From positions 1 through 64,000 of the forward strand of contig JAPEVF010000122.1 in assembly GCA_029747585.1 (NCBI GenBank): DNA of 64,000 nucleotides, written 5' to 3'. Positions 21,876 to 64,000 of this stretch are shown here, piece by piece. The position numbers and the translations under genes are program-made. How positions within the stretch are numbered: position 1 is the stretch's first letter; each line of letters begins with the position of its first letter. This stretch comes from Pleurotus djamor. Its lineage: Eukaryota > Basidiomycota > Agaricomycetes > Agaricales > Pleurotaceae. The notes under the pieces are model-generated. The model had not been told where the DNA came from and ran no database searches. It saw nothing but the letters and a program-made list of their open reading frames with translations.

Positions 21876-22037
21876 GATTCTGCAAGACGCGTCAAATCTA
21901 AATGTGGAGTCATTTTTAGGTTATGATCGAGTTGAAACTTGAATCTGGCTCAAACGCGATTCTGACAGGGGCGACCTGACTTGGGAATGCAGCAGGCTTG
22001 GACATTGCACATACCAACATCTCATTGCGACCACGAT

Positions 22038-29498: not shown

Positions 29499-30545
29499 GG
29501 TGCAGAAAGAAAATATGGGCGTGTCGCAGACACTGGCGCTGGCTATAAGCGGGTTATCGTCAGCGCTGACGATGTTAGTGACACGAAATATTGTCGCGGC
29601 CACGTCGCAGGCAAATATGAGCAAACAATGAGCCCCTGAGTCCCTAAGATGCTTGGTCAAATCGTTGTCCATCCTGGAACGCCTACTACGCATTCTTCTT
29701 CTTGTCCCTCATGTTGATTAAAAAAGGCTCACGAGATTGCTGCTGCAAGAATGAAGCTACTACTTATAGTTACCCGTGGGCGCTCACGGTCTCGCTTGCC
29801 AGCCTGAATAACGGCGTCGCTGGGACTCACAGAAGTTTTGCGACCTGACCCTTTTCCTCGCTGCGACTTTCCTCTCGCATGCATCTCGTCGTTTTTAGCT
29901 TTTTTTTTTCTACCGAAGCCACCCGAAGCCACAGATGGCTTCGAGGTTGTTCACGTTGGTCACCCCTGCGACTTACGTAAGCAAAGCTTCGTAAGCACTC
30001 AGCGCTTGTTTGTCCTTTCCTTTTCTGTACCGCTACGCCCATTTGCCTTACCGACTACCGTGTACTACTTACGCCATCGCGTCGCGTTCACTCGTTACCT
30101 CAAACACCTTGCACTCAACACATGTAGCTACATTGGATATGGTATATACAGTATGGAGCCGACCTTGGAATGCAGTTTCTTTTCCTCCACCTCGGAATCG
30201 TTACCTTAAGGCGTGTGTCGCGGGAACCGTCTCGTTCCCTTCTGCTGGTCGCATACGCTCTGGACAGCCACGCGCTACTGCCTTCTGCTCAATTTTTCTG
30301 GACCCTCCTCGCCTTTCTCTGTGTTTTCTCTTGTACTCCCAGTTTCGGGACTACCATTTGGAGCCCACTGCGAGAGGTCTCTTTTTGCATGAGTTTTCCT
30401 CCTCTCGGGTCTCTGACTAGCAATCATTGCGTACTCGGAGGATCGCCCTTTCATTTCCCTCTTACACGCCGCCGAGTGGGCCGTGCATGAAGAGGGGGGG
30501 GGCGAAAGTTGCCGATTCCCTCGTCCACCAAATCCAGCTCCTATC
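29499..30545. other. SEC23 upstream region and flank of a retroelement remnant
   Basis: Contains the SEC23 5' flank, then a pyrimidine-rich segment that runs up to the gag remnant at 30546. A long terminal repeat could lie here, since the gag start needs one upstream, but I found no matching direct repeat on the other side and cannot define its ends. Open frames on both strands overlap and show no motif. Confidence 0.35.
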
Positions 30546-31215
30546 ATGAATCATAGTCCACTACCGAACGCGGGCTCGAGCGAAGCCCCAAGGTTTGATG
30601 GAGATGCCTCTTCGTTGGTCTCGTTCTTTGAGGACTACGAAGTTGTGGCGGACGCGGCTCAGCTTACGATGGCGATGAAGATTTCTGGCGTGGTACGCTA
30701 CGTTGCGGCCGTAGAACGGGACACTTGGAGATATACGGCCAGTCAACACAACGACAACTGGGACAACTTCAAGACGGAAATACTCAATCTATATCCTGGA
30801 GCCATGGAGTTGTTGAAGCCAACCCTCCAAGATGCTGAAAGGCTGGTGGAGAATGCTAGGGCAATCCCGATCTCTTCAGCAAATGAGTTAGCGGCATACT
30901 ATCGAAAGGCGCGTACCATCCTTCTTCCGCTAGTTGACGAAGGAGAAACAGGTTCGATTCAAGCATCAAAATTGATGCTTCAAGGCTTGCCCTCAGATCT
31001 CAGGCAACGGACCGAAGCGTACCTCACCATATCCAACCCCACGGCCGCAGCCAAGGTCGTCTACAAGCTGCAGAATGTCTACGACGCGGCTGCGCACATC
31101 ATCAAGGATGGGAACGCCCCATATTTTGGCTTGCAAGACGCAGTGCGGACCACGTCGCTGAGCCTGGAATTCACGGATTCAAATTCCAACACCGATTTAG
31201 CCGGAGACTGTCCCA
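30546..31215 (+). mobile_element. Ty3/gypsy-type retrotransposon gag remnant
   Basis: The reading frame from MNHSPLPNAGSSEAPRFDGD encodes a capsid-like region typical of agaricomycete Ty3/gypsy gag: PRFDGDASSLVSFFEDYE, then YVAAVERDTWRYTASQH, then WDNFKTEILNLYPGA. No zinc knuckle, protease, reverse transcriptase or integrase follows. Instead the same frame continues without a stop into the header of gene K1. It is a truncated element whose 3' part was replaced by, or inserted next to, K1. Confidence 0.72.
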
Positions 31216-33240
31216 TGTCACGCGTCACACCCATCACGTCTTTTACTTACGAGCCCATTATCTTTATTGACGATGCAGGGAAATTTCTCTTCATTGCTCA
31301 TCCTGAAGTCGTCGATGACTCACTAGGTGCATTGGAGCAACATATGAAAAATATGCCGCAGATTCAGGACCATGGAACCCTCGTTACTACGACTCTGTCT
31401 ATCGTGAGACCATCCCGTTGCTTCATGCGATACTGTCTCAACATTGCATGCACTTTAGCTGTCGGACGGCTTAGCGATAGACATGGACCTACCTCGGTCA
31501 GAACTGGCGCAAAAGCAATGGTTAACCATTACCTACCAGGCCAAGGAATGGGTGTCGACAAGGCGGCGATTTTCAACTTATTTGAAAGAGTTTAAGAACC
31601 TGGAGTCGAAGATGTATGTCATCGCAACATGCAGTACGTTTTCCCCCCAATTCTTTCGTTTTACTTAACCCTCAATTCATGATGTGATCACCCAGAGTTC
31701 TTACGCAGTATGTTCGCGAGTCCCCATGCGTCCACCTCTAACCGTTGTTACTTTACAGCCACCCGAAAGCTCCTGGATTCACCATCCACGACTGCTCAGA
31801 ATGGAGCCTTGCTTTCCACCCAACGCCCCGAGAACTTTGCTGCCGTTTACAACGGTCGGCCTTGCACCTTGACCGGACCAAATATTGGAATATACCACCC
31901 GATATTCAGCAAGTTTCGACGGAAGGTAGCTAATCAACCTGGACTAGTGAGGGCCCTTTCAGCTCAGGAACGCTTATGCGCAGCGTCTCGGTTATTGGAT
32001 ACCAGCGCGCAGTACTTCTCCGTCGAGGCTGAACGCCATGCGGCCCTCGAAAGGGATTTGGAGATTCTTCTCTCGTCTGGCCGTTTCACCGCTAAAGAAA
32101 CTACGGTTAGTTTTGGGAGCCGGACATTCAAGCTTGGTGGTAATCGGCTTGCGAACTGCCCCTTGGTATCGTTCTTGCTGAATTTATTGTGGGAGCTGAA
32201 GAACGGAATCGGTTTGGGAGACTGTGACCCGATTGAGCAAGCCACGAGGGGTTATATGATCATGGCTACATCAGAAGAGGTTGGTGGAATCGCCACATAC
32301 GATATGAACATTACTGATCATCCAAACCATTAGCTCAGAAAACTACGAGAAATCAGCTGCATACCCATTTTCATTCTCGGAATCACCGGACCCAATCTCA
32401 CCATCTCTGGCGCCATCTATCTCGACGGTGTTGTGACGGAGCGTCTCACTGATTATATCTCTTTGATTCCCCGTCCGTCGGGAAAAGCTATTGATTATAT
32501 CTCTGACCGCGATGCATTGGTCCATCGGATCGCTCATTTTTTTTTCGGTGCTTGATGAATGTCTTGTCGATCTCGACGAGTACTATCAAACCATTGAAAG
32601 CGCGGCGCGATACCCTCTCTTCCCTGCTCCCCATTTCGCCTCCTTCGTCAACGACAGAAATGAACCTTGTGCCCTTTCTTACACAGACCGACGTTTTCCT
32701 CCACGTTCGCAACGTGCCGTATTCCATGCTACCTTAACTTCGCCCACTGAGCCTGGACGTGAATGTATCGTCAAATTTACCACACGGTACAATGCGGACG
32801 CTCATCGACTGATGTATGGAGCTGGCATCGCACCAGAGCTGATTTACTGCCAATACGAACCTGATGTCGACCGAAGATGCGTCATAACCGAATACGTCTA
32901 CCATGATCTTGGCAAACTCCCAACCGTCGAAGCCATCGAGAAACTCAAGGCTGGGCTGAAACTACTCCATGATAATGACTACGTCTTCGGTGACCTACGC
33001 GATGCGAACATCATCGTGAACAGCGACGGCAATGTTTTCCTTATCGACTTTGACTGGTGCGACAAGGTCGGCAAGGCTTTTTACCCACATGACCTTAACA
33101 CCAATGGAGTGACTTATGCAGCTGGTGTCGAAGGAGGACATGCGATTACAAGGGCTCATGATGAGGAGATGTTGAACCTTTACGTCGCTTCGGTTGAGGA
33201 GCAGCGACCTCGCGCGCACTCAGCTCAGCAACTCGCGTAA
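31216..33240 (+). pseudogene. K1: header + ExK-motif domain + kinase-like protein (Crinkler-like), frameshifted at a T9 run
   Basis: Parsed by alignment to K2 and K3. The proposed start is the Met at 31216; the header (FTYEPIIFIDDAGKFLFIAH) is followed by an intron, a second module ending YVIATC, introns, and a middle domain with GRPCTLTGPNIGIYHPIF and WELKNGIGLGDCDPIEQATR (ExK near 32193-32201). The kinase-like part has CIVKFTTRYNADAHRLM, FGDLRDANIIVN (Asp at 32992-32994) and LIDFDWCDKVG. The stop is at 33240. A run of nine T at 32537-32545 puts the frame out exactly where K2 and K3 read HxFSVLDEC. It could be a true mutation or a homopolymer miscount. The role is unknown; the class is thought to act as delivered or conflict effectors. 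Confidence 0.72.
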
Positions 33241-33837
33241 ACAATATTGGCGTCGTCCAGACACCCCTTCCCCACTTCATTACCTACTAATAGTACTATA
33301 ATACCGTTGATACCTTGCCTTTAAGGCTTAGTTAGTATGCCCTTACTGTAACTAGACTCTGTGTTGGACCACTCTACGCCCGGGCCCGAGTTAACAGCTA
33401 TCTCCGAACCGGGTTGCGATAACTTACCAAGTTGTCGTCTCTCAAGCAAGTACCACCGGCACCGTGACTCAGGTGTTTTTTCGTAGGCGGCGTGTTTTGT
33501 CTTCAACAGCATCGAAGATGCCTGTCGACATGGACAACTGATGCGTAGATCTGCGGACCTGGAGGTTTGGTTCAAGGGTAGAATGGAGGGAGGCTTTGTC
33601 GCTGCCAACGTTCTACATTCATACATATACGTACTGACTGAAAGGTGGGCTTTCGCTGGTTAGCTTTGAACATGTAATGCAGTGAATGATTAGCTGCGTG
33701 GCTTAGTGGTTTCTTGTCAAAGAATTCGTCCCCTACGCTCCTCTTAACCCCCTGAGCCCGGCTTTCACGTACCCGGTTCAAGATATAAAGATTTCCCCAT
33801 CCATACAACGCACCTTCGACCCCACCCCCACATCGCC

Positions 33838-34906
33838 ATGTCCACATACAAATCTCCGTTGACTCCTCCCCAAACTTCTTCCCAAATTCTTGTGTCATTT
33901 CCAGCCCCCCATGTTCTCTTGATTACTTTCAACAGACCTGAATCTTTGAACGCCATGTCCTTCCAGATGTCCGAGGACATGCGTGCTACTCTAGATTGGT
34001 TTGAGTCCGAACCTGAGCTCTGGGTTGTCGTCGTCACTGGCAAAGGCAGAGCCTTCTGCGCCGGCGCGGATTTAAAGAGGTGGGTCACATTCAAATCAAC
34101 GACACTAACTTCATGCCTGACCGGTGAGAACCCCAGCTGGAATAACAATCAACAATCCGGCAACTCTTCTGAGCAGCAAAACCTTCAATCAGACGCGTAT
34201 GGCTTTGGCTCGATCTCGCGTCGCCAATCCTCTGGGAAACCTTTGATCGCTGCCGTAAATGGCTTGGCTTTCGGTGGTGGTATGGAAATGATCACGAACT
34301 GTGACCTAGTCGTGGCCTCCGAAGACGCGAAATTCGCTTTGCCCGAGGTTAAGAGAGGGGTTGTTGCCATTCAAGGTGGTATCCCTCGCTTAACCGCCAT
34401 TGCTGGCCGCCAGGTTGGTTTTTGTCCTAGTTTCATGAGCTTCATCCACTGACGCCGCTGTGTAGCTCGCGAGCGAGATGCTCCTAACTGGTACACCCAT
34501 TACAGCAAAGGATGCCCGCGACCGTTTCCATTTGTATGTCTAAGCTCATCCCGAATTTACCTTTAAATCTAACGTTATCAATAGCGTAAACGTCGTGACG
34601 CCGCCTAACCTTGTCCTTCAAACCGCCCTTTCCTTGGCTGACACAATCTGTCAGAATTCTCCCGATGCAGTCCAGTCCACCAAAATAGGAATTACCTTGT
34701 TCAACAAGTACGCAGTCGACCCAGCATATCAGGAGAATGTCTGGAGGGAGGAGAGTGGGAGAGTCTACAAAGGCGCGAATATTAAGGAAGGACTGAAGGC
34801 TTTCGTCGAGGTACGAGCATTTTGCGCTTCCCTTCACAAGTCACGACCAATANTTTTTTTTTNCAAGAAACGGGCACCCAGGTGGATAAACCCCTCTAAG
34901 TTGTAA
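33838..34906 (+). CDS. Enoyl-CoA hydratase/isomerase, peroxisomal (C-terminal SKL)
   Basis: A crotonase-fold enzyme of fatty-acid beta-oxidation that hydrates 2-enoyl-CoA. Start MSTYKSPLTPPQTSS. The oxyanion-hole blocks are GRAFCAGADLK (near 34050) and NGLAFGGGMEM (near 34260), with catalytic-type Glu in ALPEVKRGV. An intron at about 34079-34135 joins DLK to SWNNNQQSG; two more lie near 34412-34465 and 34532-34584. The last intron (about 34812-34866) contains two N bases bracketing a T-run. The final exon reads KRAPRWINPSKL, so the protein ends in a canonical PTS1 tripeptide and should be imported into peroxisomes. A housekeeping gene lying between K1 and K2. Confidence 0.88.
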
Positions 34907-35497
34907 ACCAGTGTGTATGTATGTATACTCTAGTCGACGTCGAAAACGACGACATAAGAAATCAACGATAAATATATGAGGGACTTGGGTTTGCTTGACA
35001 ATGAGACCTGAGGAGTTCAACGACCTCTGGTTGATGGCAAGTCGAGTCGCGGTTGGGTACGAGCCTCTCATAGGCCCCTATTTGTCACCCCCACCACAAG
35101 GCGAATCAACCTCAAGCCTGCCACTTTTCAAACTTTTCTCAAGGGATGTGGTGATGGGCAAATGCGGTTCCAAAAGTGTGACGCTGACTAAGACTGAAGC
35201 GCCCAAAAACTTGACCGTCGAGCTTCCCGCCTCAATAAATGACAAAATACATAGTATCCCGCCCATCACACCCTGCATGACAAGAAAACAAGCTAAACCC
35301 AAGTGAACAGCACTTCTCTACCTGCTAGACAAGATTTCTGACATTAAACCCTTTAATTCTCGGGTCCAGAAGACAAAATGCGAGCCTCCTGTCCCCCTGT
35401 CCTCCCCCTGCCACTGCGAATCGTATTTCAGAAAATCCGGTTCAGCATCTCGTCTCAGCTCTTAGGCTTCGCAGAAAGCTTTGCTTCTTTTTGTAAT
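34907..35497. other. Intergenic, no supported gene
   Basis: A plus frame (34995-35306) lacks any recognisable feature and overlaps an antisense frame. It is treated as untranslated sequence downstream of the hydratase. Confidence 0.4.
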
Positions 35498-35609
35498 ATC
35501 TACAGCTTCTACGTAGGAATAGATCTCAGTAANTTTTTTCTGCTGAGTTACACTCACTAACTCGGCATAAACTTTGAATTTCATAAAATCCTACGTAGAA
35601 GCTGTAGAT
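35498..35609. repeat. 21-bp perfect inverted repeat with about 70-bp spacer
   Basis: The arms 35498-35518 and 35589-35609 are exact reverse complements (core CTACAGCTTCTACGTAGGA). An N at 35535 lies in the spacer beside a T-run. It sits about 150 bp upstream of K2. It could be a hairpin, a miniature element or a regulatory site; flanking target duplications were not seen. Confidence 0.7.
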
Positions 35610-35752
35610 TTTTACATTTCAAGCAGATTCTTTCACCAACGTGTATCCGAATTCGTGACGTAGCGAGCTCTACATTTGAAGGCGTTTTCGCTCTGACTTG
35701 ATGGTGCGAGAAAACACGGACAAACAAATGGTTCCGTAGTAATCACCAAGGG

Positions 35753-37832
35753 ATGCCTTTCACTTACCCCATCATCTTTGCCGACCATGCAGGGAAATTT
35801 CTCTTCGTTGCTCGTCCTCAGGTCGACGATGATACATTGAGCACATTACAACAGCATATCAAAGACATGCCGCAGATGGATACAACGCCTCTGTCTACGG
35901 ACGTGTATATTGTGAGATCCCTACCTTATTTTTCAATCTGCCCGTGTTAAGATATTGGCATGCGTGCCAGCTTCCAGAAGATCTGGCGATAGAAATGTAT
36001 CTGACTACTACGACACTGGCAGAACAGGACTGGTTGGCCCTCGCGAAGCAAGGCCTGTCGTGGGTGTCTCCAGGGCAGCCACTTTCTCAGTTTACGGAGA
36101 CCGTGAAAGTCCCTGAGTCCAAGTACTACGTCATCGTAATATGCCGTACGCGAGTTTTCGCCTTCTAAGCTCTCAACATCCAACTCTCATCTAATACAAA
36201 CCTCTTTTCAGAATTTTCACGCGAAACCTGTAAGTTCGCGACTATGCTCATCTATCGCTCAAATCCTTATCGATAATATCCGTAGTTGCAGGCACGGTCT
36301 TTTCCGCGAAAAATGCTGCAGAGTGGACCGCTACCTACACTCGAAATCTACTGAGCTCGTCTTACCTGGCTTCGATGAATGAGGCTTTGATCTCCACCCA
36401 AAACATTAAAAACATCGCCGCCATATATAACGGTCGTCCCCGAGCTTTGACTGGACCCAGTATCGGGATCTATCATCCGATATTCAGGAAGTTTCAGCTC
36501 AAAGCGGCCAAACAACCTTCCCAACATGAACTTGCGACAAACCCTTCGATGATCGAACGGTTACGCGCAGCTTCACGGCTACTGACCACCAGTGCGAGGT
36601 ACTTCGCGAACGAGATTGACCGCCATAACGCCCTCGCGCCGGATATGAAGATTCTTCTCCCGACGGGGAAATTTACGACCTCAGATACCACGTCAAAGTT
36701 CGGCGACCTGGAATTTGAGCCTTCTGGCCATCGGCTAGCTAAATGCTCTCTAGCAACGTCGATGTTGAGTCTCCTGTGGGAGCTCAAGAACGGGATGGGC
36801 TTGGGAGGCGCAGACCCGCTTGAACAAGCGGCGAGGGGTTATATGATCATGGCTACTTCAGAAGAGGTCCGTGGAATGTTTCCAGATGACCCAAGCATCA
36901 ATCAACTGATCAACTTGAAACTTCTACTCTAGCTTACAGAGCTCAGGAAAATCAGTTGTCTCCCCGTCTTTCTGCTAGGAATTGCTGGGCCCAATCTCAC
37001 ATTTTCTGGTGCCATCTATCTCGATGGCGTCGTCACACAACATCTAACTGACTACATCTCTCTGATCCCATTTTCCAAGGGGAAGCTAGACGAGTATCTC
37101 TCTCCACGCGAGGAGCTAGTCTATCGGATTGCCCATATCTTCTCGGTGCTCGACGAATGCCTGGTTGATCTTGACAAGTACTATGCGACAATCGAAACTG
37201 CGGTGTGCCATCCTCTCTTCCCCGCACCCCATTTCAATACCTTCATCGACGACGCCAACGAAAGGTGTGACCTCACTTATACTCGACGACAATTCCGTCC
37301 GCGCTCTCCTCGAACTGTTTTCCAGGCCACCCTGACATCGCCCACACACCCTGGACGCGACTGTATGGTCAAATTCACCACGCAGTACAATGCAGACGCT
37401 CATCGACTAATGCACCAAGCTGGTGTGGCACCAGAACTGCTCTACTGCAAGTACGAACCTGGTGTCGGCAAAATATGTGTCGTATCTGAATTCATACCTA
37501 ACGATCCCAGTAAATTCCCAACCGACGAAGCTATCGAGAAACTAAGGGCTGGATTGAAAGTACTTCACGAAAACGACTATGTCTTCGGTAACCTACGCGA
37601 CGCGAACATTCTCGTCAACAACGACGGCAATGTTTTTCTCGTTGGATTCGACTGGTGCGACAAGGTCGCTGCCTTTTATCCACTAGACCTCGTCCCTGAG
37701 ATCACTTGGGCAACTGGAGTTCAAAAAGGAGAAGATATTACGAAGGCTCATGATGAAGAAATGCTGGAGATCTACATTGCTTTCGTTCATAAACAGCGAC
37801 AGGCCATTGAAACAGCTAAGCAGTTCGCGTAG
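35753..37832 (+). CDS. K2: header + ExK-motif domain + pseudokinase-like protein (Crinkler-like)
   Basis: Start MPFTYPIIFADHAGKFLFVA, the header (about 55 aa). An intron near 35910 is followed by the second module (LAEQDWLALAKQG...YVIVIC). After two introns comes the middle domain: GRPRALTGPSIGIYHPIF, LLWELKNGMGLGGADPLEQA (ExK intact, Glu at 36780-36782), then after a further intron FLLGIAGPNLTFSGAIYL and LTDYISL. The kinase-like domain (from about 37140) has CMVKFTTQYNADAHRLM, but its catalytic-loop Asp is Asn (FGNLRDAN, codon 37590-37592) and the DFDW Asp is Gly (VGFDW, codon 37644-37646). Without those residues phosphotransfer is unlikely. No frame break. R1 begins 340 bp downstream on the same strand. 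Confidence 0.78.
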
Positions 37833-38173
37833 GCAATTGGTACATCGTCCATAGGAGGACCGCAACTTTTACAAATCTATTCTTCGGTAGCTATTTCTCA
37901 ACGAATCGTGTCCTTTGACTTCGCTGAAAGTTTTACAGAATCCGCTACCGCTCAGGTCCCCTGGCCCATCAAACGTACCATGCCTCCATTAGCCTTGCCC
38001 ATTCGTAGTCTAGCTATGTGGTATTACGAGGCTTGCCATGACGAAACACGACCTAGCGTTGCGTCCGGTGTTCCCCTACCCCCTATATTGCATAAAAGTC
38101 GTAGTTGGGCCTTGGGCCATGGCACAATCCAAAGTCCCCTATCGACCACTGACTACGACCGTTCGCTGCCCAA

Positions 38174-39788
38174 ATGCCTTCAGACACCCCCGTTGACTAT
38201 CAACCTCTCGACGCCCGGGTTATCGTGTGCATGCGTTTCAAAGTGATCACGAATAACTACAGTTCCCATGAGTACCTCTACGACTTCTTTTCCGCTATGT
38301 CTCTCGTGTACGAAAGTCTTTTCCCTTTGCACCTCAACAAAGTGGTCAAGGACAAAGGAACATTACTCGAGTTCATTGGACGGAAGAAGGCTTCCGACGT
38401 GCTCGCTACTGTCCAGGCGGCCATTCAATTAGGAAACCTTCAGTCTGTGCGCGATCTTGGTATGTGTTACTGGTCCATCCTAGTCCTACGAGACTGTCGC
38501 TAATATGTGACTTTTATTCTAGCTTTTTACAAAGTTCCACCTCCACTTTTTATATCGTGGCTGCCTGGTCAACCCGATCTCAATGTTGTCTGGGAGCAAG
38601 CCAGCAAAGGCGAGTGGCTTCAAACACTCCCAGACTCAAATGGAGACGACTTCGATATCCTGCACCCAAGCCTCGGTCTCCACGGTGCGTATGGCACGCC
38701 AATTGTTGTTCTCGAAGAATACGAAGAAATGTGGGAGGCCTTGGGATTCATGTCCAAACGGCAACAAATGCCTCCATCGCGTCTATACTTCGTGGGCCAT
38801 GCCGGTATCGGTAGGCTCTCCTTTCCATGGTATCCTGACAATTCTTTGACTTGATGTTTCAAGGCAAGACTTTGTTCCTCCAATATGCCATGGCTCGCGC
38901 CTGCTCTGAGCGACTTCCCTTCATTGTGGCATCAACGTTGGGGCTCGAGATTGTCTATTTTGACGGTAGTAAGTCCAATTCCATGTCGCTCAGTTCTCCT
39001 CCTTACTCCTATCCACAGAGAACTATCCTAGAGTTATCGAGCACAACAAGCTGGGGCGAAGGAACTTTGACCAAGAGCCTTTCATCCTAATGGATTCACA
39101 CCATGCTTTCCAAACTCCTCCCCCCGCATTTTCGACGGTTCAATTATGCCTTGCGACTTTCGCTTGCCCTGACTCACAGCGCTGGGATTGGTCTCGCAAA
39201 TTTGGCTTCAACCGTTTCTTCCATGTAAAGCTTCCAACATCGAAGGACCTCGACCGTATCGTGTATGTACCATTTTACCCCTTGGCCTAAGCTCTAACCA
39301 TCCCGACACAATGTAGCTGTGCCGCGAAGGACGCACCCAAATCTAATAAACCCCATCTCGACTTGCTGCACTATATCGGACCATCCATACAGGAATTAAT
39401 CGCCATCCGATCGATTGAACGTGCTCAACGTAAATACCCTCAGGCCGCTCTCGAAGTCGCCAGGAATCCGAGCATCCTACAAAGTGACGGTGCTATATCG
39501 CCCTTGGCCACTGACCGACAATGCGCCGAATTCCAAAGCATCTTCTTCATGGTGCCACCATCGGAGTTGCTACCCTCAGATGACGACGTAAACGAACCGC
39601 TGCGTCTTCAGCCTTTCTTTCATGCCCGTTACATTGTTCCAACTCTTTGGCAATACCAGCTCCTTCGAGATGCAGTGCGGGCCGCACAAGCGGAGTGGAC
39701 ACCCGGATTTTCGACAAAGTCATTACCATTTGCGAGCGTCCTTGTTGACCAAGTCGTCGATGAGAACCCCACGTTCTCATTCCCATGA
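38174..39788 (+). CDS. R1: P-loop NTPase of Crinkler type
   Basis: Exons at about 38174-38459, 38523-38810, 38864-38966, then further ones to 39788. The N-terminal 95 residues (from MPSDTPVDYQPLDARV) are unlike the header in R2. Then LFISWLPGQPDLNVVWEQAS matches R2. Walker A is GHAGIGKT, split by an intron in the middle of the motif; a Walker B-like FILMD stands about 75 residues later, followed by an ACPDSQRWDW block in the place of the SP motif seen in Crinkler NTPases. The C-terminal part has LHYIGPSIQELI and EFQSIFFMVPPSELL. No nuclease or kinase domain follows. It pairs with K2 upstream. Function unknown. Confidence 0.72.
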
Positions 39789-39902
39789 AAATTGCTTCGC
39801 ACGGCGTAGTCTCAGAGAGTCAACCTATGTACCTACCAAAGATCATTGCATAATTGTATCATTCTAGAGAATGTAATTGATAAATAAAATAATTTTTTAA
39901 AG

Positions 39903-39984
39903 CGACGCCAGCAGGATTTGAACCTGCGCCCTCAAAGAGGAACAGATTTCTAATCTGTCGCCGTAACCACTTGGCTATAGCGCC
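39903..39984 (-). tRNA. tRNA-Ser (anticodon AGA)
   Basis: Minus strand, 82 nt. A 7-bp acceptor stem (GGCGCTA with TGGCGTC), an anticodon stem ACAGA/TCTGT around the loop TTAGAAA giving AGA, a class II long variable arm with a CCTC/GAGG stem, and a T arm GCAGG-TTCAAAT-CCTGC. The discriminator base is G. A T-run lies downstream on the minus strand. Identical to the copy at 57189-57270. No intron. Confidence 0.93.
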
Positions 39985-41742
39985 CTGACCAGAACTCCCG
40001 CCTTGGGCACTATGGCTACCCGTTGCTCAATTCGTATTTTGAGCGATAAGGGTCAAAGTCATCGCAAAGTCGAGAGAGTGTAGCCAGGCATATTCTTGGA
40101 AGGTACACTCAGGTACGCAACAGGCACCAATAGTGTCAACGTTGAGCTCGGATCGCTTGGTCGTGGGCTGGTGAGCTGCGAACGCCATCGTAAAATCACA
40201 TCTTCTGGGAAGAGTGTTTGAGCGGCGGTGCCCGCAGACGATAGAGCGCGGAAATCGCCTCCAAAGGGTCTAGGCATGAAGTGAGCTTCAGCGCCATTCC
40301 AAGGCACACTTGAAGTCTGTTTGAACGGCGATCATTGCGAGCCAAAGGTCCTTCCTTGATCGACTATCACGGGTGAGACGGTGGGGGTACTGCTTGGACC
40401 ATGTTGCGAAGCCGAACGACGGCGTAATCACGAGTTTGAACATTAACAGAAACGTTCGGACGTGTGACGCAAAGAGTCGAAGGGTCAACCTCGCACCAGT
40501 CATCCTAGTCTCAGAAGTCTGTGTCCAAGGAGCCTAACGGATATAAAAAATCAAGTTGAGCGCCCTCGATGACCTGAGGCACCAATAGAAACGTACCGAC
40601 CAGTATCGGAGCGTTCGGCTGATCGCGCTCGCAAAACGGGGTGCCCTATTGCGCCTAGCGTCCAGGGAGAGCAGCGACCGTAAGTCTTGTTGCGAAAACT
40701 CTTCTCACCTTCAGATGGGTCGACATATCGCAATGGTGATAGAGTACACATGTCCTGCAAGACAAGCGGTGATACAAGGTCAGTAATGATAGCATCACAA
40801 AACGTGTGCGCTAACCGTGAAGCCTGATAGATTTGACACCGCACGTAGTCGAAGACCGAAGCAGATTTTCCACCCCAAATTTGTCTGTGATCAATGTTTA
40901 ACCGGGCGAAAGATCAACACACGAGTACGTCCCACCGGTTTACGGACACAGGAACACAAAGGCTGTTTCAATGTTTTACCCAGCGCCCTCTTGCGAATGG
41001 GCAAGACGTGGGTACTACTCATGCAGTAATTGAGAGATAGACAGGGTTGATTAAATGTCCGTGTCCTAGCACCGTCCACTCACGTCCCGCCTAAGGATTC
41101 GTACGTGACGTGAATTTAAGCACATGCAGCGTACGTGCATCACAGATGCATCAGCATCAGACGAGTGCTACATATCAACCGTCGGCTCGGACGATTCACG
41201 AACATTCGAAGCAAGTTGATATTAAGAACCACTGGTAACAATAATCTCATGAACGAGCTGGCCCTTATGCGAGAAAACAAAGACGCACCCAGAAATTTTC
41301 GAGAAGCCTTCCACGCGTTCGAAGTCGAGCCTTAAGGACAGATGCTCGTGTGTGTTCTGCGTGTGGATCGTGGACGTTGGACGGGCGTAGAAAGGTTCAG
41401 CCGAAGACGCCAAGGTCGAGGCCTCGGTTCAGGTTCGGACGGGAAGTGGTGTACGGGGTCCAATAGGTAGCCACCTCCTGCAGCTCCTAATTCCCGACTT
41501 GACTTCGAGTTTCTTGTTTAGACTCAAGTTTTCATATTTCTAGACAGATTCATTACCACTTCCAATTGTGACAGTCTTATCAAGTCCAGGACTTCCTCAG
41601 AGATCTTGTACCATAGAGCTAGAAGACACGAACTTTGAAGGTCTGTTCACCATCAGTGAAGCACAACTTCATTCCTAATTCACGACGAACAACAAGCGTG
41701 TAGCTACCACAGAAGCTACATTAGTAAGATTCGCTCGCTCAC
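39985..41742. other. Intergenic, no supported gene
   Basis: 1.75 kb. Short minus-strand open frames at 40059-40844 do not join into a coherent gene and match nothing that I know; plus-strand frames are antisense shadows. No repeat or RNA gene recognised. Confidence 0.4.
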
Positions 41743-42690
41743 TCATTGATACTTGCTGTACTCATTGTCTCCATACGCTCTATCAAAGTCATCATCATCA
41801 AACCTCTCTCCGCCCTCTTCATCTTCTCGATGATACCCATCATCGTAGCTCCCACGCTTGTATCCTCTCCAAGGTCTTACAAAGCTTGGTCTATGCCCGA
41901 AAGAATAAGGGTTAAAGCTACCGCCACGGTATGGGTGGAATGGTGGCGGTCTGAGGCCTTGGTGCCGGAGTCTTCCATCATCGTCCCCAATTTGCAAGGA
42001 ACTTGCGTCGTGAGCGTCTTCATCGTTGTTGGTGGAAGGGACTTGGCTGGAAGGCGTAGCTGCTGGTAGAGCTTTGGTGCCCGTGGCGGAAAAGGATACG
42101 GAAGAAGCTGGCGAAGATGAGCCTCGTGAAGGCCCGTGGCTTGACTGGGGGTTCCTCGACCGAGTTGGGGATGGGTCTGAAAGCGCAGAACTTGTGCTTT
42201 GGGTAATACTCGTACTCGTGAAATGAGTAGATGTTGGGCTAGGTCGACTTTGAGTACGAATTACCCGATTACTTGTCGTTCTGGATGCGCCTTCAGTGCT
42301 AGGGGTGGTTGTCGCCGAAGCAAAAGCACTTGAACTGGATGGAACGGCGGTTATTTTTCTATCATCGTTCTCGTGGCCACGATGATTGTCGCCGCCTTCG
42401 TGTATATTATTGAAGGGCCTCTGGTGCTGAAGCGGGCGCCGATAGCGAAATCGTAAATCTGGTGCTGGTCGTCTATTATACCAGGGTGTACCGCGATATG
42501 GAGGCCACTGTCTCTCGGTGATGTTCTCTGTTTGCTCCGAGTCTGCTGGCCTGCCAAACAGCGCTGAAGTCAGCATCGCAGCGTTTATAAGCATACGAGG
42601 TAAGGTTTACTTGAGTACGGGTGAAGCATTAGCGTGCTGCAAGAGCAGACCAAAGGCAATAAGCAAGAAAAGCTTGTATGAATTGAGCAT
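41743..42690 (-). CDS. Secreted low-complexity Ser/Thr-, Arg/Gly/Tyr-rich protein
   Basis: Exon 1 (42611-42690) encodes a signal peptide, MLNSYKLFLLIAFGLLLQHA followed by NASPV. An intron of about 60 nt joins it to exon 2 (41743-42550), which starts PADSEQTENITERQ. The mature protein has an N-glycosylation site (NIT), a 90-residue Ser/Thr-rich spacer suited to O-glycosylation, and a tail of FHPYRGGSFNPYSFG and RGYKRGSYDDGYHRED type, ending very acidic with DNEYSKYQ. No cysteine-rich core and no enzyme fold. It may be a cell-wall or secreted structural/effector protein. The start is chosen because it gives the signal peptide. Confidence 0.65.
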
Positions 42691-43538
42691 TTTGGAGCGA
42701 CCGGCGCTGGATATGCTGTGAGGAGAGTTGGAGCACTGCTAAAGAGCTTGGCCAAGGAGACGCTTTCTTTTATACCCACCCCAAATGGACAGTCTGGCCT
42801 TACCGAAGAAGATTACATGCCCTCGTCCTCATCGAAACCGAACTTAATTGACTAATTCGCTTGCTTGTGGACACATGGTTCTTGCCCAGAAGTACTCAAA
42901 GCCCGAGGGAAATAGTCACAGACGCAAACTTACATCTACATGTACACTCCCCTCTCTGGTCCTTGGAGATGAGACCGTTGATGATGGTAGGCGAGCACGC
43001 CCGCCCACACACCCCTAACCCCCTGAAAGGACCCCGGAAACGGAGGAAGATTCGATCGGCCAGGCACCAAGGTTGACCATCTTGCGGACCTTGGCGCCCA
43101 AATTAGGCACTTGTTTTCACGCGTTGCTCATCATTCACACTTTTGCGGCGGCTTGAGGTCGCTTTGTTTCCTCTTTCTTCCTCTCCACCACCTCCTCGTT
43201 CCCTTCCGCCGTCGACGACAAGCTTGTGAGTTTGTTTAGGCCCTTTCCGAGAGAAATGTGCGCTAATCAATGGTCCTCTCGGATATATATTCGGTTTCGT
43301 CGTCTCATCAACATCATGTTTCTTCATCATCATCGTTTGACAAGAAAATATAGGTCTACTCGGGGCACACAGGATTGAAACAGGAAGAGGGCAGACGGAA
43401 AGTCCTCGGTATCTCTTATAAACCCACGCGCACACGCACACACACTCCTTTTCCAAGCACGGTCGTTTTACAGCCTTCTCAGGCGCATATATCCACTTTT
43501 TTCTGCTTTGCCAGCTGGCATTGCCCCAGAAGTCGACA
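42691..43538. other. Divergent promoter region
   Basis: Lies between two divergently transcribed genes (41743-42690 minus, 43539-45069 plus). It has a CT-rich tract at 43150-43230 and a CACACACAC run near 43430-43445. No gene supported; the minus frame 43103-43546 is a composition artefact. Confidence 0.45.
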
Positions 43539-45069
43539 ATGTTCACTCCCCCACCTTCGCCGAGGCCCGCAGCGAGGAGCTACGCCCAGACGACTCCAGC
43601 GACGTCGAAGGACCAGCGCACAACGATTCCGGCGGCGCAGAAGGGTTATCGGCAGCTGAGGCCTTCGACGCCTTCGCCGTTAGCTTCACCGCTGCCATCT
43701 CCTCGGAATTTGTCAGCTAGCTTTAATGCCGACGGTACGCTGTGGAGCGACGATCAGAGAGCGGCAATGTCAACGCCTTCGTCATCGAAAACGTCACCGA
43801 TCCCGCCCCTCCCATTTCCGACTTCTTCCCCGACGCCCGACCCACAAACGCAATTGAAGCGCCGCGTCGGGCGTCGAATCAAGTGGGCCGCCATCCTTCT
43901 CCCACTCACCCTCTTCCTTGTCACGGCGTTATCTCATCGGTCACGGGCCCTCCCATGGCCGACGCCGTTTTCAAGTCTGTTTCGGTCACAGCCACATTTG
44001 ACATACACCTACGTCAAGCCTTCGTGTCGAATTCAAGTTCCTCCGTCTGATGAGGAAACACATCATCACAAACGCCAAGAAACTCCCTCGCCCACTGCGC
44101 CTGTCGCATTTCCTTCTGCACCAGCATCGCCCTCATCACCAACACCCGCCTCGGCGTCGTCGCAGACGTCCGCGACACTTGCTGCCACAGCCCAACCCAT
44201 ACCAACGGTCCCCTCGTCCCAACCGAATAACCCACCGGTTCCGACACCTTTCCCCCAGCCTTTCGACTCGGAAATCAGCACAAATTTCTCATCAACATCA
44301 TGCTATGCCTTCTTCCAACGCATGCTCAACATGGTCGAATTCAGAAGCTGTCGAAGCTTCGGATTGTTGATGCAAAGTTCGGATCAGTTTCTGAAGGCTC
44401 AGAATAACCTGACACTGATGAATACGCTGTTGTGGGGGACGTGTAATACGAATACGGCGGATACGCAGTGTCGTGCGAATATGCAGATGTTTGCGACGCA
44501 GCTGCAGACGGAGTGTTCACAGGATCTGAAGGATGGGAATGCGAGGGCTGTCAGTACGTTGACAAGTGAGTGCCTACCTGTCTGGAATACTATCCGTAAA
44601 TTTTTAACCGTTGCTTCATTTTCTAGTGATCAACGCCTACTCTCTCATGCGATCCTCGGGCTGCCTCATCGACCCATCGTCCAACACCTACTGCTACCTC
44701 AACGCCATCCACAACACCAACCCCTCCGATCTGTATTTCTACCAGCTGCCAGTGGGGACTAGCCTCCCTCGTTCGTCGACCCCCACGTGTTCCGTGTGTG
44801 TGAGGAGTTTGATGGCGGGGTACACGGATGCGCTGGAGAAGGATGCAAGGGACCTAGGAGGGGGCAATGGGACGACGTCAAAGGTGTTGACGGGGCTGAG
44901 AAAGACGTATGATGCGGCGGCACAGAGGGCGGTGAATGAGTGTGGGTCGGGATACGCGACGTTGAATGTGGTGAGCAGTGGTGCCGTGGCAAATGTTGAC
45001 CTCGCTACGTCGCGCATGGCGTTGGCGGTCATGATGGTCCTTGGGTTGGTGATCTCATTCGGGCTCTAA
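43539..45069 (+). CDS. Membrane-anchored cysteine-containing protein (DUF7729-like)
   Basis: Start MFTPPPSPRPAARSY at 43539, a start typical of this fungal family; an in-frame ATG at 43521 adds only six residues. The Pro/Ser-rich cytosolic N-terminus is followed by one membrane helix (AAILLPLTLFLVTALS), a long Pro/Ser/Thr linker, and an extracellular domain with spaced cysteines (SCYAFFQRML, FRSCRSFGLLM, LLWGTCNTNTADTQCRANM, TECSQDLKDG). One intron (about 44566-44626, GTGAGT..TTCTAG) precedes INAYSLMRSSGCL, SNTYCYLNAI and TCSVCVRSLM. The C-terminus ends hydrophobic (MALAVMMVLGLVISFGL), like a GPI-anchor signal. Function unknown. The family name is from memory and is an inference. Confidence 0.72.
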
Positions 45070-46247
45070 GCTAACTTATCTACACCAATATCTTGACGAT
45101 CGCTATGATTTATCTTTCCTGTAGTTTTTTTTTCGGATTGCTTGGTGTTACATTTCCTTCCTCGAAGGGACTTTTTTGTTTCTTGCTTGTTTCGTAGTTC
45201 TAATCTTATTCGTTTCGTAGGGCTATTTTGGTTGCTTCATCATTCGTAGTTACTAGTAATGTACATATCAGATACAGCTTGGTTGTAGTCATTGTGGGTG
45301 AGTGGACGTCTACGGTCGTTCCTGATAAATATGGTTCAACTGGATAGCCTAACCTATCATACAAGATTCGCTCTTTCCTTCCCGTAGAAAGGCAACATCG
45401 CAATGAAACTCAAATAACAATAAAGATGCTACTGTTTGGAATTTTCGCGTTGATTCACAATTGAAAACATCTGTAAGTGATCAGTCAACGTACTCACAGA
45501 ATATAGGATATTCCGGCCAGTCCATCACAGCCTACAGGCCTATCTCTTTGGCGCACAAAATTTTTGTCGACGGCAATCACTAGTACAATGGCTGAACAGA
45601 CATACTACGGCCATTGTTGGAGCTGGGGCAGGCGTTGGGACCTTTCGACAAAGCCAATGTATGCTTCCTAGAGTATATGGAAACTTCCCCATGCCTTCCA
45701 GGTCCTGAACAACGGAAGCAGGCCCACTCCTGGGCCCCTGTTGCATCAGGAGCAAATCAGGAGATCCCTAACTCCTGGCCGTAGGCGGCCTCAGCCAACT
45801 CGAAAGCCGGGAACCGTCCACGCGCATGGTAAATGCCTATGAAAGGATCCCATGGCGGTCATGATCAAATTTTGCGGCTAGCTGATCCCTAGACTAAGTC
45901 ACAGTCAAGCGTGGAGTTCACACGACCATCCGCATCATCATCAGAAACTTCACCGAAGCGTTCATTTGCTCAATGCTAGCAATGGATTTGCGAGGCTACC
46001 AGATCCATTCATCAGAAACACGCAGCGTCCACGGCCCCCATGATGTCTTTGCAACTGTAAAACGCGCCCCTTGGTCATGTCTGCTCACGGTAGCGTCCGT
46101 CTTTGAGTAGAAATCACTGATCTCTGCGCGACTATGGCCTTCCTTTTGTTATCTTTCCGTGATGGCATCTTTGACAAACTCTGAGCCAGGGGTGTGGGGC
46201 CAAACCTAGCCAAGCGAAATTGTTCTGTATCCTATTACCAAGAGAAA
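45070..46247. other. Intergenic, no supported gene
   Basis: 1.2 kb between two convergent genes. Holds their 3' flanks; a minus frame at 45540-45755 has no recognisable feature. No repeat seen. Confidence 0.45.
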
Positions 46248-47993
46248 TTATAGCAGTAGATCTGTTGCGTCCACAGAGGGAATGGCTTGCAACATCCTGT
46301 CACCCATGCGTGTGTTTCTCATTGCCGCGGATATCGCTCTCTGGAGAACACGCCATTGCCAAAGCGTAAAAACCTTATACCGCGGCATAAAATTCCTCTG
46401 AACGCGTGTTGGGATCGGTTCATCTGCAAAATACGGATGGAGGACCTCAGGTGGTTCCATGAAGAAAAAGGCGTGAAACGCTGCGCGGTATTCGTTGTCT
46501 GCGATGGGGTGACCATTCATAGCGTGTTCCAGTTCGTTAAATTTGAGTGCTAGAGTCTCTGCGGCTCTGGTGAAGTGCAGTTCGATGCTACCTGGTGGTT
46601 CGGTAGTGAGTAGGCGACGAATGTTGGGGCCGATGTATGGGAGGAGCTTGAACTTGGATTGTGTTTACTATGTGCGGGGGCGACGTAGCTGTATAGATCT
46701 GAGTATTAGCAAGGGAATTGGGACCGTTGGGAGAAGGATAGAGATGCGTACGCGATACGCTTGAGATCCTTGATAGAGGGAACCTTGACGTGGAAGAAAG
46801 CCTGATACGTTTCCTTCTTTGCCCAATCCCAGCGCGAAGACTCCGGGGAGGTCGTAACAGCAATACAACGGTCCACATATAGGAGGTGGAGAGGAGCTTG
46901 GGCAGCGATGAGCGAGTGGACGAGCGCAAAGCACTGGGGATCAATATCCTCTGATAATTGGGGTACGAAAGTGATCACTCGGGGACGAGTCCCTGTTGGT
47001 TGAAGGAAACGTCGGTGAGTACATTAAATAAGACTAGACAAGGTACGAGGAAACTTACTACCGTCAAAGTAGAACGACGGCGCTTTGTCGTAGGAAGAGG
47101 ATAATATAAACGGACGCTTCTCATGGCAAGCACGAGCCATGGCATAACGAATGAACATTGATTTTCCTGCCAGAAAGGTAGCAATCGTCAATTCCAGAAA
47201 TAACTCATGTAAAATTCGATCAAACACACCTGTACCGGGCTGGCCTACAAAAAAGAGACGCGGCGAAGGTTTCATGGCATTCATACCCATCAAAGCAGTC
47301 CACATCTCTTCGTATTCGTCCATGATGACGATAGGGGTGCCATGTTCGTCGGCGAGACCAAGACCTCGGTGAAGAATGGGAAACCCTCCTATATCGGCGT
47401 CATGCGGGACAATCTCCTCGAACAGCTCACCATTAGTTGCGTGTTCCCAAACAGTGATGAGATCAGATTGGCCCTCCAGCCAAGTAGCAGTGAGCGCAGC
47501 CGTGGATGAGGATGAGTAGTTCAGTGCAGTGGATGACGTATTGTTGGAAAAGGCTGTCACAGTGGGTAAGGGCGAGAAGACGCAGATAAAAAAAGTCACG
47601 AACTGCAGAGGACAAGGACATATACCTTCTGCGGATCCCAGTCTTTACTGAGATCACTTAGGGATTCAGTGAGCAGCCATGAGGAACTCCTCCTAGCAAC
47701 GGAGTCCCAGTCTCGATTCGATAATTCTTCCGAAGAGGCTTGTTGAGAGGGTGCGTCCTTTTCTCCGAGCTAGCATGAGGCATGAGTAAAATACAATGAA
47801 ACATCGGCTAGATGCTTGGTTGACTCACTATGAGCACAACCGACTGGGAGATGGGCCCAGGGGCACCGAGCAGGATCTCGTTTTTGAGTCGCGCTTGGAA
47901 GGATTTGAGCGAATAATCAGTAACCTCAATTTGTTGAGTGGGATACACCTGTTTGCGCTGCGAGTCGAAAACGAGAAATGTCACTGCGTTCAC
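46248..47993 (-). CDS. R2: header + P-loop NTPase (Crinkler-like)
   Basis: Start MNAVTFLVFDSQRKQVYPTQ, a header of the same type as in K3, then an intron and the second module (ELSNRDWDSVARRSSSWLL ... YVLVLC), then an intron at the same place as in K1-K3. The ATPase part has ATWLEGQSDLITVWEHATNG, an EYEEMWTALMG helix and Walker A GQPGTGKS, split by an intron as in R1. The Walker B position reads FALVHS where R1 has FILMDS, so the acidic residue is replaced by His. A TSPESSRWDW block and FFHVKVPSIKDLKRI follow, then YIGPNIRRLL and FFFMEPPEVL. The stop is at 46248. No nuclease follows. K3 lies 222 bp upstream on the same strand. Confidence 0.73.
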
Positions 47994-48215
47994 AGTCCTT
48001 CCTGTCCCTGCTCCTATTTATTTCGCTGTGCATCGTCCTCGCAGCCGGAGTTGCCATTATATGATCTGTTACATAATAAAGTGGCATGAAGCTTGACAAC
48101 GTTGAAGTTCTCAACCTTGCAACTTTACAAGCAAGGTACTAATTACAACTATTGAGACTGAGGCCTAGGGACGGGGAAGAAAAGTGGATGGCGATATCAG
48201 ACCCAGTGAACACAG

Positions 48216-50304
48216 TTATGATGCGTCTGGACGAGGCCTTTTGTTACTCGACTCGGGACGGTGAACCTTGAGCTTGAGCTGTCGATCCCGGTGAACCGAA
48301 GCAATATAATTCCCCAACATCTCCACATCATGAGCCTTTGTAATCTCATCCCCTCCTTTCACACCAGTTGCCCATGTTACCCCATCAGTGTTAAGATCAT
48401 GTGGATAAAAGGCCTTGCCGACCTTGCCGCACCAGTCGAAGTCAACAAGAAAAACATCGCGGTCATCGTTCACAACGACGTTGGCATCGCGTAGGTCACC
48501 GAAGACGTAGTCCTTATCGTGAAGCGCTTTCAGTCCGACCCTGAGTTTCTCCATAGCTTCGTCGGTTGGTAATTTGGTAAAATCGTCGTGTATGTATTCG
48601 GACACAACACATATCTTGCCGACATCAGGTTCGTACTTGCAATAGATCAACTTCGGCGCGACACCAACTTGATGCATCAGCCGATGTGCCTCCGCATTGT
48701 ATCGCTTGGTGAATTTGACAATACAATCACGTCCAGGGTATGTGGGGGAAGTCAAGGTGGCATGGAATACGGCACGATTAGAACGCGGAGGAAATCGTCG
48801 GTTAGTGTACGAGAGGGTACATATTTCATCGGTATCGTCGGTGAAGGTGTTGAAATGAGGTGCGGGGAAGAGAGGATGGCGTATTGCGGACTCGATCTTC
48901 TCATAGTACTCGTCAAGTTCAACAAGGCATTCATCGAGCACAGAGAAAACGTGAGCAACCCGATGGACCAAAGCCTCGCGATCGGAACTGTAATCATCCT
49001 CGTCGTCATTGGCAGAGTCATAGGGAACGAGAGATATGTAGTCGATGAGGCGCTGCGTCACTACGCCTTCAAGATAGATAACGCCAGAGATTGTAAGATT
49101 GGGTCCGCAAATTCCGAGGAGGAAGGCAGGCATGCAGCTGATTTTCCGGAGTTCTCTCAGCTAGTAGGTATGTGGTCAATAAAGCGTATACCGCCGGTAT
49201 CATCTCTACTAACCCTCTCAGATGTAGACATTATTTGATAACCCCGCACGGCTTGTTCGATGGGATCAGCTTCTCCCAAACCTATCCCGTTCTTAAGCAC
49301 CAACACGAGACTCAACATTGCCATTACCAAGGGGCAAGACGCGTACCGATTCCCGTCAGGTTTGAATACCAGATCGCCAAATTGGAAGGTGGTTTCTCGA
49401 CCGGTAAAATTGCCCGACGAGAGAAGAAGCTTTAAATCAGGTTCGAGATCTTCGTGCCTCTTGGACTCTACAGAAAAGTACTGCGCACTGGTATGCAAGA
49501 GTCGTGAAGCTGCGCGCAGGCGTTCTTTGGCTGAAGGCTTTGCCGCAAAATCACTGAGGGATGGCTGTTTGGCCACTTTTCGTTGAAACCGTTTGAATAT
49601 CGGGTGATAGATACCAATACTCGGTCCGGTCAAGGCGCCAGGACGACCATCGTAAACAGCAGCAACATTTTCGGAATTCTGTGCAGGGATCAAGGCCGCA
49701 TTTTTGGTAGTCGTGGATGGGGAGTCCAGTCGCTGTCGGATCAATGCGGCGTTCGACGCGGCTGATTGGTGCTTAGACAGCAGCAAGACAAGAATCAAAG
49801 CACACTCACGACTGTTCGGAAGGCGATGACGTCGACGATTGGAAAAGGCTTGTAAAGGGTAAGGGGGGCGTAGATACAGAGAAACAAATTCACGAACTAC
49901 AAAGTACAAGGATACGAACTTTCTCGTCCTTGACGAGCACAGATAGAAACTGGCTTGACAGCAACGTTGAGCTCCGCCGGATCATAGCGTCCCAGTCCAG
50001 AGCATTCAGTTTTTCCAAAGAGGAGTTCTGAGAGGGTGCGTCCTCTTCTGAGAGCTAGCATAAAGCAAGCAAAAATGGGATTGGAATGAGTATATGGCTA
50101 GACATATTTGGGATAGGACGCGCAGCTCACTCTCAAAACGAGCAACTTGAAGATAGGTCCAGGAGCACCGGGCAGAGTGACATTGCTGAGTTGCATTTCA
50201 AAGGACTCGAGAGAATAATCAGCAACTTGAACTTCCCGGATGTGATACACCTCTTTGCGTTGCGAGTTGAAGAGGAGGAATGTCACCATGTTTTTCACAG
50301 ACAT
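48216..50304 (-). CDS. K3: header + middle domain + kinase-like protein (Crinkler-like)
   Basis: Start MSVKNMVTFLLFNSQRKEVY (header), intron, second module (EKLNALDWDAMIRRSSTLL ... RILVLC), intron, then a middle domain with GRPGALTGPSIGIYHPIF. Here the ExK Glu is Val: the sequence is VLVLKNGIGLGEADPIEQA, with Val at 49298-49300. After a further intron come FLLGICGPNLTISGVIYL and LIDYISLVPY. The kinase-like domain keeps the key residues: CIVKFTKRYNAEAHRLM, FGDLRDANVVVN and LVDFDWCGKVG. The tail (HRPESSNKRPRPDAS) is basic. The frame is intact across exons. It is followed by R2 on the same strand. A role as effector is inferred from the class only. Confidence 0.78.
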
Positions 50305-56970: not shown

Positions 56971-57188
56971 TAGTATATCGGAGGGCAGGGGCGATGAAGG
57001 ACGGGTCGTGTTTACCAGCGAAGCGCCAAACCCCGGGTCGGAGGGATCGAGACCCGTGACGTCACCCCTGTCCTTTCGAAGGGGTTGTGCACAGAAGTCA
57101 TTGGCAAGTCGAAGGTCTGTACACGCTCATAGAGTTAGAGTCTCTAGTCTCAACGAAAACGCGTCGAAAAATGTAAAAACATCTGTAG

Positions 57189-57270
57189 CGACGCCAGCAG
57201 GATTTGAACCTGCGCCCTCAAAGAGGAACAGATTTCTAATCTGTCGCCGTAACCACTTGGCTATAGCGCC
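57189..57270 (-). tRNA. tRNA-Ser (anticodon AGA), second copy
   Basis: 82 nt on the minus strand, identical to 39903-39984, with the same class II variable arm and AGA anticodon. A TTTTT tract about 10 bases beyond the 3' end on the minus strand fits a Pol III terminator. Confidence 0.93.
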
Positions 57271-61190: not shown

Positions 61191-61199
61191 TGCTTCTCT

Positions 61200-63774: not shown

Positions 63775-64000
63775 CGCTCTCGGCGTATGACAACGTCTTC
63801 TCGAAACCCTCGAATTGTACCTTTGGAAACGGTACCACTCCTTTCTTGACTCTTGCTCTCTCGCCTTTCGTACGTACGACCTGATGGACTCAAACCACCT
63901 TCAAACCACCTTCCATAACTTATATTCATACTTACTGTTTGAACACTATATAAGCCCCCCATCTTGTACCGTAGAAAAGTAAGTGCCCTCGAATAACCAG

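What the first reader, a model, noticed from the sequence alone, without database searches (positions are those of the whole stretch)
35753..50304. Two mirror-image K-R gene pairs: ExK/kinase-like gene followed by NTPase gene
Seen: K2 (35753-37832) is followed on the plus strand by R1 (38174-39788), and K3 (48216-50304) is followed on the minus strand by R2 (46248-47993). The gaps are 341 and 222 bp. The pairs face each other across 6.5 kb of unrelated genes. Known: Crinkler/CR effectors often place a header, NTPase, nuclease-like and kinase-like domains in one polypeptide. Inference: here the functions are split over two genes kept in the same order, so the products may work as a two-component system, such as an NTPase-dependent carrier or regulator for a nuclease/kinase payload, or payload plus partner.
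Basis: partly seen in the sequence, partly recalled or inferred. Interest (0 to 1): 0.9.

Follow-up and report, generated by a model that had tools for sequence, protein, structure and literature searches.

The report
Decaying mushroom Crinkler-type gene cluster
A stretch of the pink oyster mushroom genome holds three copies of a nuclease-plus-kinase gene and two ATPase-type genes of the Crinkler kind; two ATPase genes do sit right behind a nuclease-kinase gene, but I found this pairing at no other place in the genome and most copies look disarmed or broken, so it is more likely a shuffled gene cluster than a two-part machine.

Summary
In detail: K2→R1 (+) and K3→R2 (−), gaps 341 and 222 bp, facing each other across 6.5 kb. 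The genome is Pleurotus djamor. K has a header, a PD-(D/E)xK-like region and a kinase; R is a P-loop NTPase. In print these are two separate Crinkler-RHS (CR) architectures, so no polypeptide need have been split. The pairing is local: 2 of 5 R loci and 2 of 7 close K loci, none elsewhere at the sensitivity used. It is not one block duplication: R1+R2 as a clade is rejected (AU p 0.004). K3 and R2 share a header module (55% aa, introns included) found at no other locus; K3's header is about 20% identical to its paralogs', the bodies 56-72%: exon shuffling between neighbours. Most copies look disarmed: one of three predicted nuclease residues is changed in 4 of 5 K lineages, K2's kinase has lost both catalytic Asp, R2 lacks an ATG, its Walker-B Asp and one reading frame. 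K's layout resembles SPOK spore killers (nuclease kills, kinase protects). Best reading: a decaying, recombining CR cluster with SPOK-like K, a candidate self-contained poison-antidote; a K-R partnership is unproven.

The parts
31215..33240 (+). K1: header + nuclease-like + kinase gene; reading frame broken inside a T-run near 32595; nuclease Asp column reads Gly; no R behind it
   Evidence: nearest relative among those compared is the C541 copy (dS 0.26-0.27; 95/97 support)
35753..37832 (+). K2: header + nuclease-like + kinase, 608 aa, open frame; exons 35753-35911, 35971-36145, 36212-36229, 36292-36866, 36933-37832; kinase catalytic-loop Asp reads Asn and the DFD Asp reads Gly; nuclease Asp column reads Ser
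38174..39788 (+). R1: NTPase with an R-type header, 464 aa (= ONZ45_g5900), Walker A and B residues kept, no C-terminal domain of the R4/R5 kind
46248..47993 (-). R2: NTPase gene with a K3-type header; no in-frame ATG, frame break before the C-terminal part, Walker-B Asp reads His; no C-terminal domain
48216..50304 (-). K3: header + nuclease-like + kinase, 620 aa, open frame; exons 50131-50304, 49898-50054, 49810-49848, 49214-49761, 48216-49160; nuclease Glu of ELK reads Val, kinase residues kept
49898..50304 (-). K3 header module (two header exons and the intron between)
   Evidence: 55% aa identity to R2 header, 17-21% to five other K headers; 66% DNA identity over 465 alignment columns including introns
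47604..47993 (-). R2 header module, counterpart of K3's; homology ends just past the phase-1 intron before the NTPase exons
36292..36866 (+). K2 exon with the predicted PD-(D/E)xK nuclease motif (PSGHR ... WELKNGMG ... DPLEQAARGY)
   Evidence: motif read by eye; spacing D281-K302 in the copy on C541
48216..49160 (-). K3 exon with the kinase-like domain
   Evidence: Pkinase E 8.5e-4, below cut-off; fold match for the paralog P0002

Best explanation
This is a local, recombining and partly decayed cluster of Crinkler-RHS-type (CR) genes, not a conserved two-component operon. Shown: K proteins carry an N-terminal header, an ExK region and a kinase-like domain; R proteins have a P-loop; the two families co-cluster on one contig; K3 and R2 share a header module whose 3' end falls at an intron boundary; predicted catalytic residues or frames are lost in most copies. 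Inferred: an intact K (the copy on contig C541, or the P. ostreatus homologue) works as a self-contained poison-antidote in the manner of Podospora SPOK: the nuclease damages DNA and the kinase domain of the same or a sister protein neutralises it. Copies with a changed nuclease site but an intact kinase site (K3; K1 if its frame break is a sequencing error) would then be antidote-only or dying copies. R genes are an independent CR class; their place behind K arose by local duplication and recombination, which also let R2 and K3 come to share a header.
Against: The nuclease region was not modelled with confidence (pLDDT about 25-35 over most of it; model mean 53.8), and no Pfam model matches it, nor does PF20147 Crinkler match the four headers given. 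Pfam gives R1 and R4 no NTPase family. No SPOK sequence could be compared directly. SPOK's QxxxY lies 54 residues after the Lys; K's Q(x4)Y lies 13 after. Two K-R pairs formed by R lineages that are not sisters could still mean selection for pairing. Frame breaks could be assembly errors; no reads were available.
Confidence: 0.66

Rival explanations
1. K and R are a true two-gene system: the NTPase product drives or regulates the nuclease-kinase product, with pairings assembled more than once.
For: R1 and R2 belong to different R lineages (100/99 support; AU p 0.0041 against R1+R2), yet each lies directly 3' of a K on the same strand. The paired R genes both lack the C-terminal domain that R4 and R5 carry in frame. 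K3 and R2 share a header found at no other locus at E<=1e-3.
Against: No pair elsewhere in the genome. R3, unpaired, has its C-terminal domain in another frame, so domain loss does not follow pairing cleanly (2 of 2 paired against 1 of 3 unpaired). K2 and R1 have unrelated headers. R2 is probably broken.
Confidence: 0.14
2. Chance or purely structural clustering: CR genes gather in a repeat-tolerant region and the two adjacencies mean nothing.
For: If only the six CR genes on the contig are shuffled, two or more K-R pairs in this order arise in 14% of shuffles. R5 on another contig lies beside a partial copy of the FG-GAP/RHS-repeat gene region also found at 60.5-64 kb of the window, which suggests regional shuffling.
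Against: Co-location of the families is beyond chance: contigs with a close K make up 0.85% of the genome but hold 3 of 5 R loci (binomial 6e-6, treating loci as independent, which local duplicates are not). The shared header shows the neighbours interacted at DNA level.
Confidence: 0.15
3. One recent block duplication of a K-R pair, inverted.
For: K2 and K3 come out as sisters with moderate support 82/85.
Against: R1 groups with R3 and R4, R2 with R5; R1+R2 rejected, AU p 0.0041. K2-K3 dS is 0.8-1.5: not recent.
Confidence: 0.03
4. K3 and R2 are one gene encoding a header-nuclease-kinase-header-NTPase protein, as the depositor annotated.
For: ONZ45_g5902 is 1033 aa and joins them; R2 has no ATG of its own at the expected place.
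Against: The model drops K3's tail, part of R2's header, the conserved RLFFV before the P-loop and the conserved LLPYIGP stretch (compare).
Confidence: 0.02

Closest known systems
CR (Crinkler-RHS-type) proteins with REase + kinase C-termini (Zhang et al. 2016, known here only through passages of PMC5289972)
   Same: Header, ExK-type nuclease region, then a kinase domain; multicopy, with exchange at the end of the header
   Different: No match to the Pfam Crinkler header PF20147 (four headers tried); mushroom family with no assigned host or target
CR proteins with NTPase + REase C-termini
   Same: R4 and R5: P-loop NTPase followed by a C-terminal domain with a D...Q-x-[ST] pattern (REase-like by eye and recall only)
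   Different: R1 and R2 lack that domain; R3 has it in another frame; R1, R3 and R4 share a header of their own
SPOK spore killers of Podospora (PMC6660238) and FuSpok (PMC12693581)
   Same: N-terminal domain of unknown role, PD-(D/E)xK, kinase, in that order; similar spacing inside the nuclease motif; multicopy, with a nuclease-changed, resistance-keeping natural copy known (Spok2 of strain A)

Membership tests
CR protein, REase-kinase class (K) | Kinase domain at the C-terminus | tested here: met
CR protein, REase-kinase class (K) | PD-(D/E)xK nuclease domain | tested here: inconclusive
   D281...E300-L-K302 and Q315/Y320 by eye; no Pfam match; model pLDDT about 25-35 there
CR protein, REase-kinase class (K) | Crinkler ubiquitin-like header (PF20147) | tested here: inconclusive
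   No Crinkler hit at E<=10 for four header sequences; model of P0002 1-115 is alpha/beta at pLDDT 60-80; fold not matched to ubiquitin
CR protein, NTPase class (R) | P-loop NTPase: Walker A and B | tested here: met
   GxxGxGK[ST] in 5 of 5; Walker-B Asp in 4 of 5, His in R2; Pfam AAA_16 E 0.005 for R3, below cut-off, and no NTPase family for R1 or R4
CR protein, NTPase class (R) | C-terminal REase domain | tested here: not met
   Absent from R1 and R2; no fitting remnant downstream of either
SPOK | Domain order N-domain, PD-(D/E)xK, kinase | tested here: inconclusive
   Order and motif spacing agree, nuclease fold not shown
SPOK | Sequence membership in the SPOK family (IPR052396) | not testable with these tools
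SPOK | Killing by nuclease, resistance by kinase | not tested
   Needs experiment
Two-component K-R operon | Adjacency kept in homologous loci | tested here: not met
   0 of 3 other R loci and 0 of 4 other close K loci that could be checked in this genome; other species not testable

The most novel reading that the evidence does not exclude
The cluster is a poison-antidote selfish locus in a basidiomycete whose two halves have been parcelled out between copies: nuclease-site-changed, kinase-intact K3 acts as antidote, a kinase-dead copy (K2) as poison, and the NTPase genes R, stripped of their own C-terminal domain and in one case carrying K3's header, serve as partners that share its address or dimer contact.
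Probability: 0.07. Interest if true: 0.85.

Novelty: new member of a known kind. Interest (0 to 1): 0.4.

Why it matters
If the K family works like SPOK, mushrooms would have a nuclease-kinase poison-antidote family with natural intact, nuclease-changed and kinase-changed copies in one genome, so the roles of the two domains could be read from natural variants. The K3-R2 header sharing also shows how CR headers may move: as an exon pair bounded by a phase-1 intron, between neighbouring genes of different CR classes. I saw no such description in the listings of my paper searches or in the passages read of six papers.

Tried and rejected
One block duplication: rejected for R. K-R pairs elsewhere in the genome: none found. 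R homologues in other species: two searches found only P. djamor proteins. An R remnant behind K1: none in the window at E<=1e-3. C-terminal remnants behind R1 or R2: eight hits at E<=5 in the whole window, none behind R1 or R2 (best 0.05; one, E 0.06, lies inside R2's P-loop exon). Allelic second copy of the region: three segments are single copy and a fourth has only short repeats and the tRNA elsewhere, so presence/absence between nuclei could not be read. A clean K2/K3 poison/antidote split was my first idea; it weakened when K2's nuclease Asp column also turned out changed and K1, C930 and C147 showed other changes. The idea that only paired R genes lost the C-terminal domain weakened when R3's proved to be in another frame (an unrecognised intron is not excluded). 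R1 structure: mean pLDDT 37; only its N-terminal 98 residues (pLDDT about 47-68 after the first ten, helical) say anything. K header and nuclease folds: not resolved; ubiquitin or restriction-enzyme folds did not appear in the list shown, which is filled by kinases. The padloc and phrogs libraries were not searched. K-like loci on 14 further contigs were read only in part.
Full report
What the window is. Protein searches with spliced models return the depositor's own annotations from Pleurotus djamor (pink oyster mushroom): ONZ45_g5898 (K1 joined to an upstream ORF), g5899 (enoyl-CoA hydratase joined to K2), g5900 (R1, identical to my model over 464 aa), g5902 (K3 joined to R2) and g5918 (R3, contig C245 at about 99.2-101.4 kb). 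The genome held has 55.9 Mb in 1413 contigs; the window is the first 64 kb of the 102.6-kb contig C245.

Observation. Intron removal gives open proteins for K2 (608 aa), K3 (620 aa) and R1 (464 aa). R2 does not read through: it has no ATG where K3 has its start, the upstream in-frame codons meet TAA without an ATG, and the frame breaks between the exon ending in KDLKRIA and the conserved LLPYIGPNIRRLL part. K1 is broken in a run of T. Whether these are real or assembly errors cannot be told here.

What R is. R1 has Walker A GHAGIGKT and a Walker-B-like FILMD. Five R loci were found: R1, R2, R3 (C245 end), R4 (C1226:5253-7380) and R5 (C780, about 12.26-14.08 kb), plus one weak hit on C709, E 0.05. 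R4 and R5 carry a further C-terminal domain in frame; R3 has it in another frame than the rest; R1 and R2 lack it, and three C-terminal queries find nothing behind them. That it is REase-like is my reading by eye. R1, R3 and R4 share a header that is mostly helical in a poor model of R1; R5 seems to have none.

Is the pairing general? Seven close K loci were found: K1-K3, C541, C930, C147 and a fragment at the end of C730. K1 is followed by the hydratase gene. With 2.1 kb or more of flank on the relevant side (1.2 kb for R3, which meets the contig end), no R lies next to C541, C930 or C147 and no K next to R3, R4 or R5; the C730 fragment meets the contig end and could not be checked. K-like loci on 14 further contigs are not on the R contigs C1226 and C780. 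So pairs: 2 of 5 R and 2 of 7 K, all here. Outside the species a K homologue turned up in P. ostreatus (PC9H_001777, 41%), an R homologue nowhere; the search needs shared five-residue words and scored a capped list, so this absence is weak.

One duplication or more? In a five-row tree R2 goes with R5 and R1 with R3 and R4 (100/99); holding R1 and R2 together costs 15.9 log units, AU p 0.0041. The R2 row had X at its frame break, and R5 has many unread bases. In a six-row tree K2 and K3 are sisters with moderate support (82/85), K1 and C541 with 95/97. dS is 0.26-0.27 for K1-C541 and 0.8-1.5 for K2-K3. A single recent K-R block duplication is therefore not the likely origin. Co-location is beyond chance (3 of 5 R loci on 0.85% of the genome), and two or more ordered pairs have a probability of 0.3-1.2% under full shuffling but 14% under shuffling among CR genes only. 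These are after-the-fact numbers and ignore tandem duplication.

Header exchange. K3's nuclease-kinase body is 56-72% identical to those of its P. djamor paralogs, but its header is 17-21% identical to five other K headers and 55% identical to R2's. The DNA match (66%, 465 columns) starts at K3's codon 7, runs through intron 1, exon 2 and intron 2 and stops about ten bases into exon 3 of both. R2's header also weakly matches other K headers (E 1e-9 with C541), so it is a K-type header placed before an R body. Direction of transfer is inferred, not shown.

Disarming. Columns D281, E300, K302 (numbering of P0002 = C541) read D/E/K in C541 and P. ostreatus, G/E/K in K1, S/E/K in K2, D/V/K in K3 and D/E/N in C930; C147, 97% identical to C930 over 4.9 kb, reads as C930 by eye. 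Kinase columns K475, D548, D566 are kept in all six rows but K2's (K/N/G); C147 keeps the two Asp by eye. C930 and C147 also have frame breaks or stops. R2's Walker-B Asp is His. dN/dS for the ten nuclease-exon pairs is 0.18-0.39, averaged over long times with some dS above 1, so it does not show present function.

How it would work. In SPOK a Lys in the nuclease is needed for killing and an Asp in the kinase loop for resistance, and a natural nuclease-changed allele keeps resistance (PMC6660238, passages); DNA damage is the likely effect (PMC9972908, passages); copies with antidote but no toxin are discussed for the Spok and wtf families (PMC12693581, passages). By analogy the intact K is a candidate single-protein poison-antidote, K3 a candidate antidote-only copy, K2 ambiguous because both sites are changed. 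That a nuclease-kinase architecture is shared by SPOK and CR proteins is noted in print; what is added here is a mushroom family with this pattern of losses.

Verdict. Observation confirmed. The two-component interpretation is possible but not favoured. The likeliest account is a decaying and recombining CR cluster with SPOK-like K proteins.

Noticed in passing
60500-64000 (+) and L075 (C780) 3672-5436: A gene with FG-GAP-like and RHS-repeat matches (Pfam E 1.6e-5 and 0.008, below cut-offs) lies downstream of the cluster; pieces of its region recur at 70-94% identity directly upstream of R5 on contig C780. Described only.
   Followed up: partly
30417-31212: Open frame upstream of K1, annotated as part of g5898, looks like a retroelement gag by eye; no Pfam match at E<=0.01.
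   Followed up: partly
39902-39984 and 57188-57270: Two near-identical tRNA-Ser(AGA) genes, the first about 0.1 kb behind R1; similar stretches on several other contigs.
   Followed up: no
16429-21878: Diverged copies (72-90% DNA identity in pieces) of an unknown gene in both orientations, with a Tc3-type transposase ORF at 18092-18967 between them.
   Followed up: no
L077 (C930:1-6500) and L078 (C147:83500-90000): 4.9 kb shared at 97% identity, both with a broken K copy: recent segmental duplication or two haplotypes.
   Followed up: no
30417-37832 and 46248-50304: Deposited gene models g5898, g5899 and g5902 each join a K gene to a neighbouring ORF; g5898 and g5902 also skip conserved stretches. 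They should not be used as evidence of fusion proteins.
   Followed up: yes
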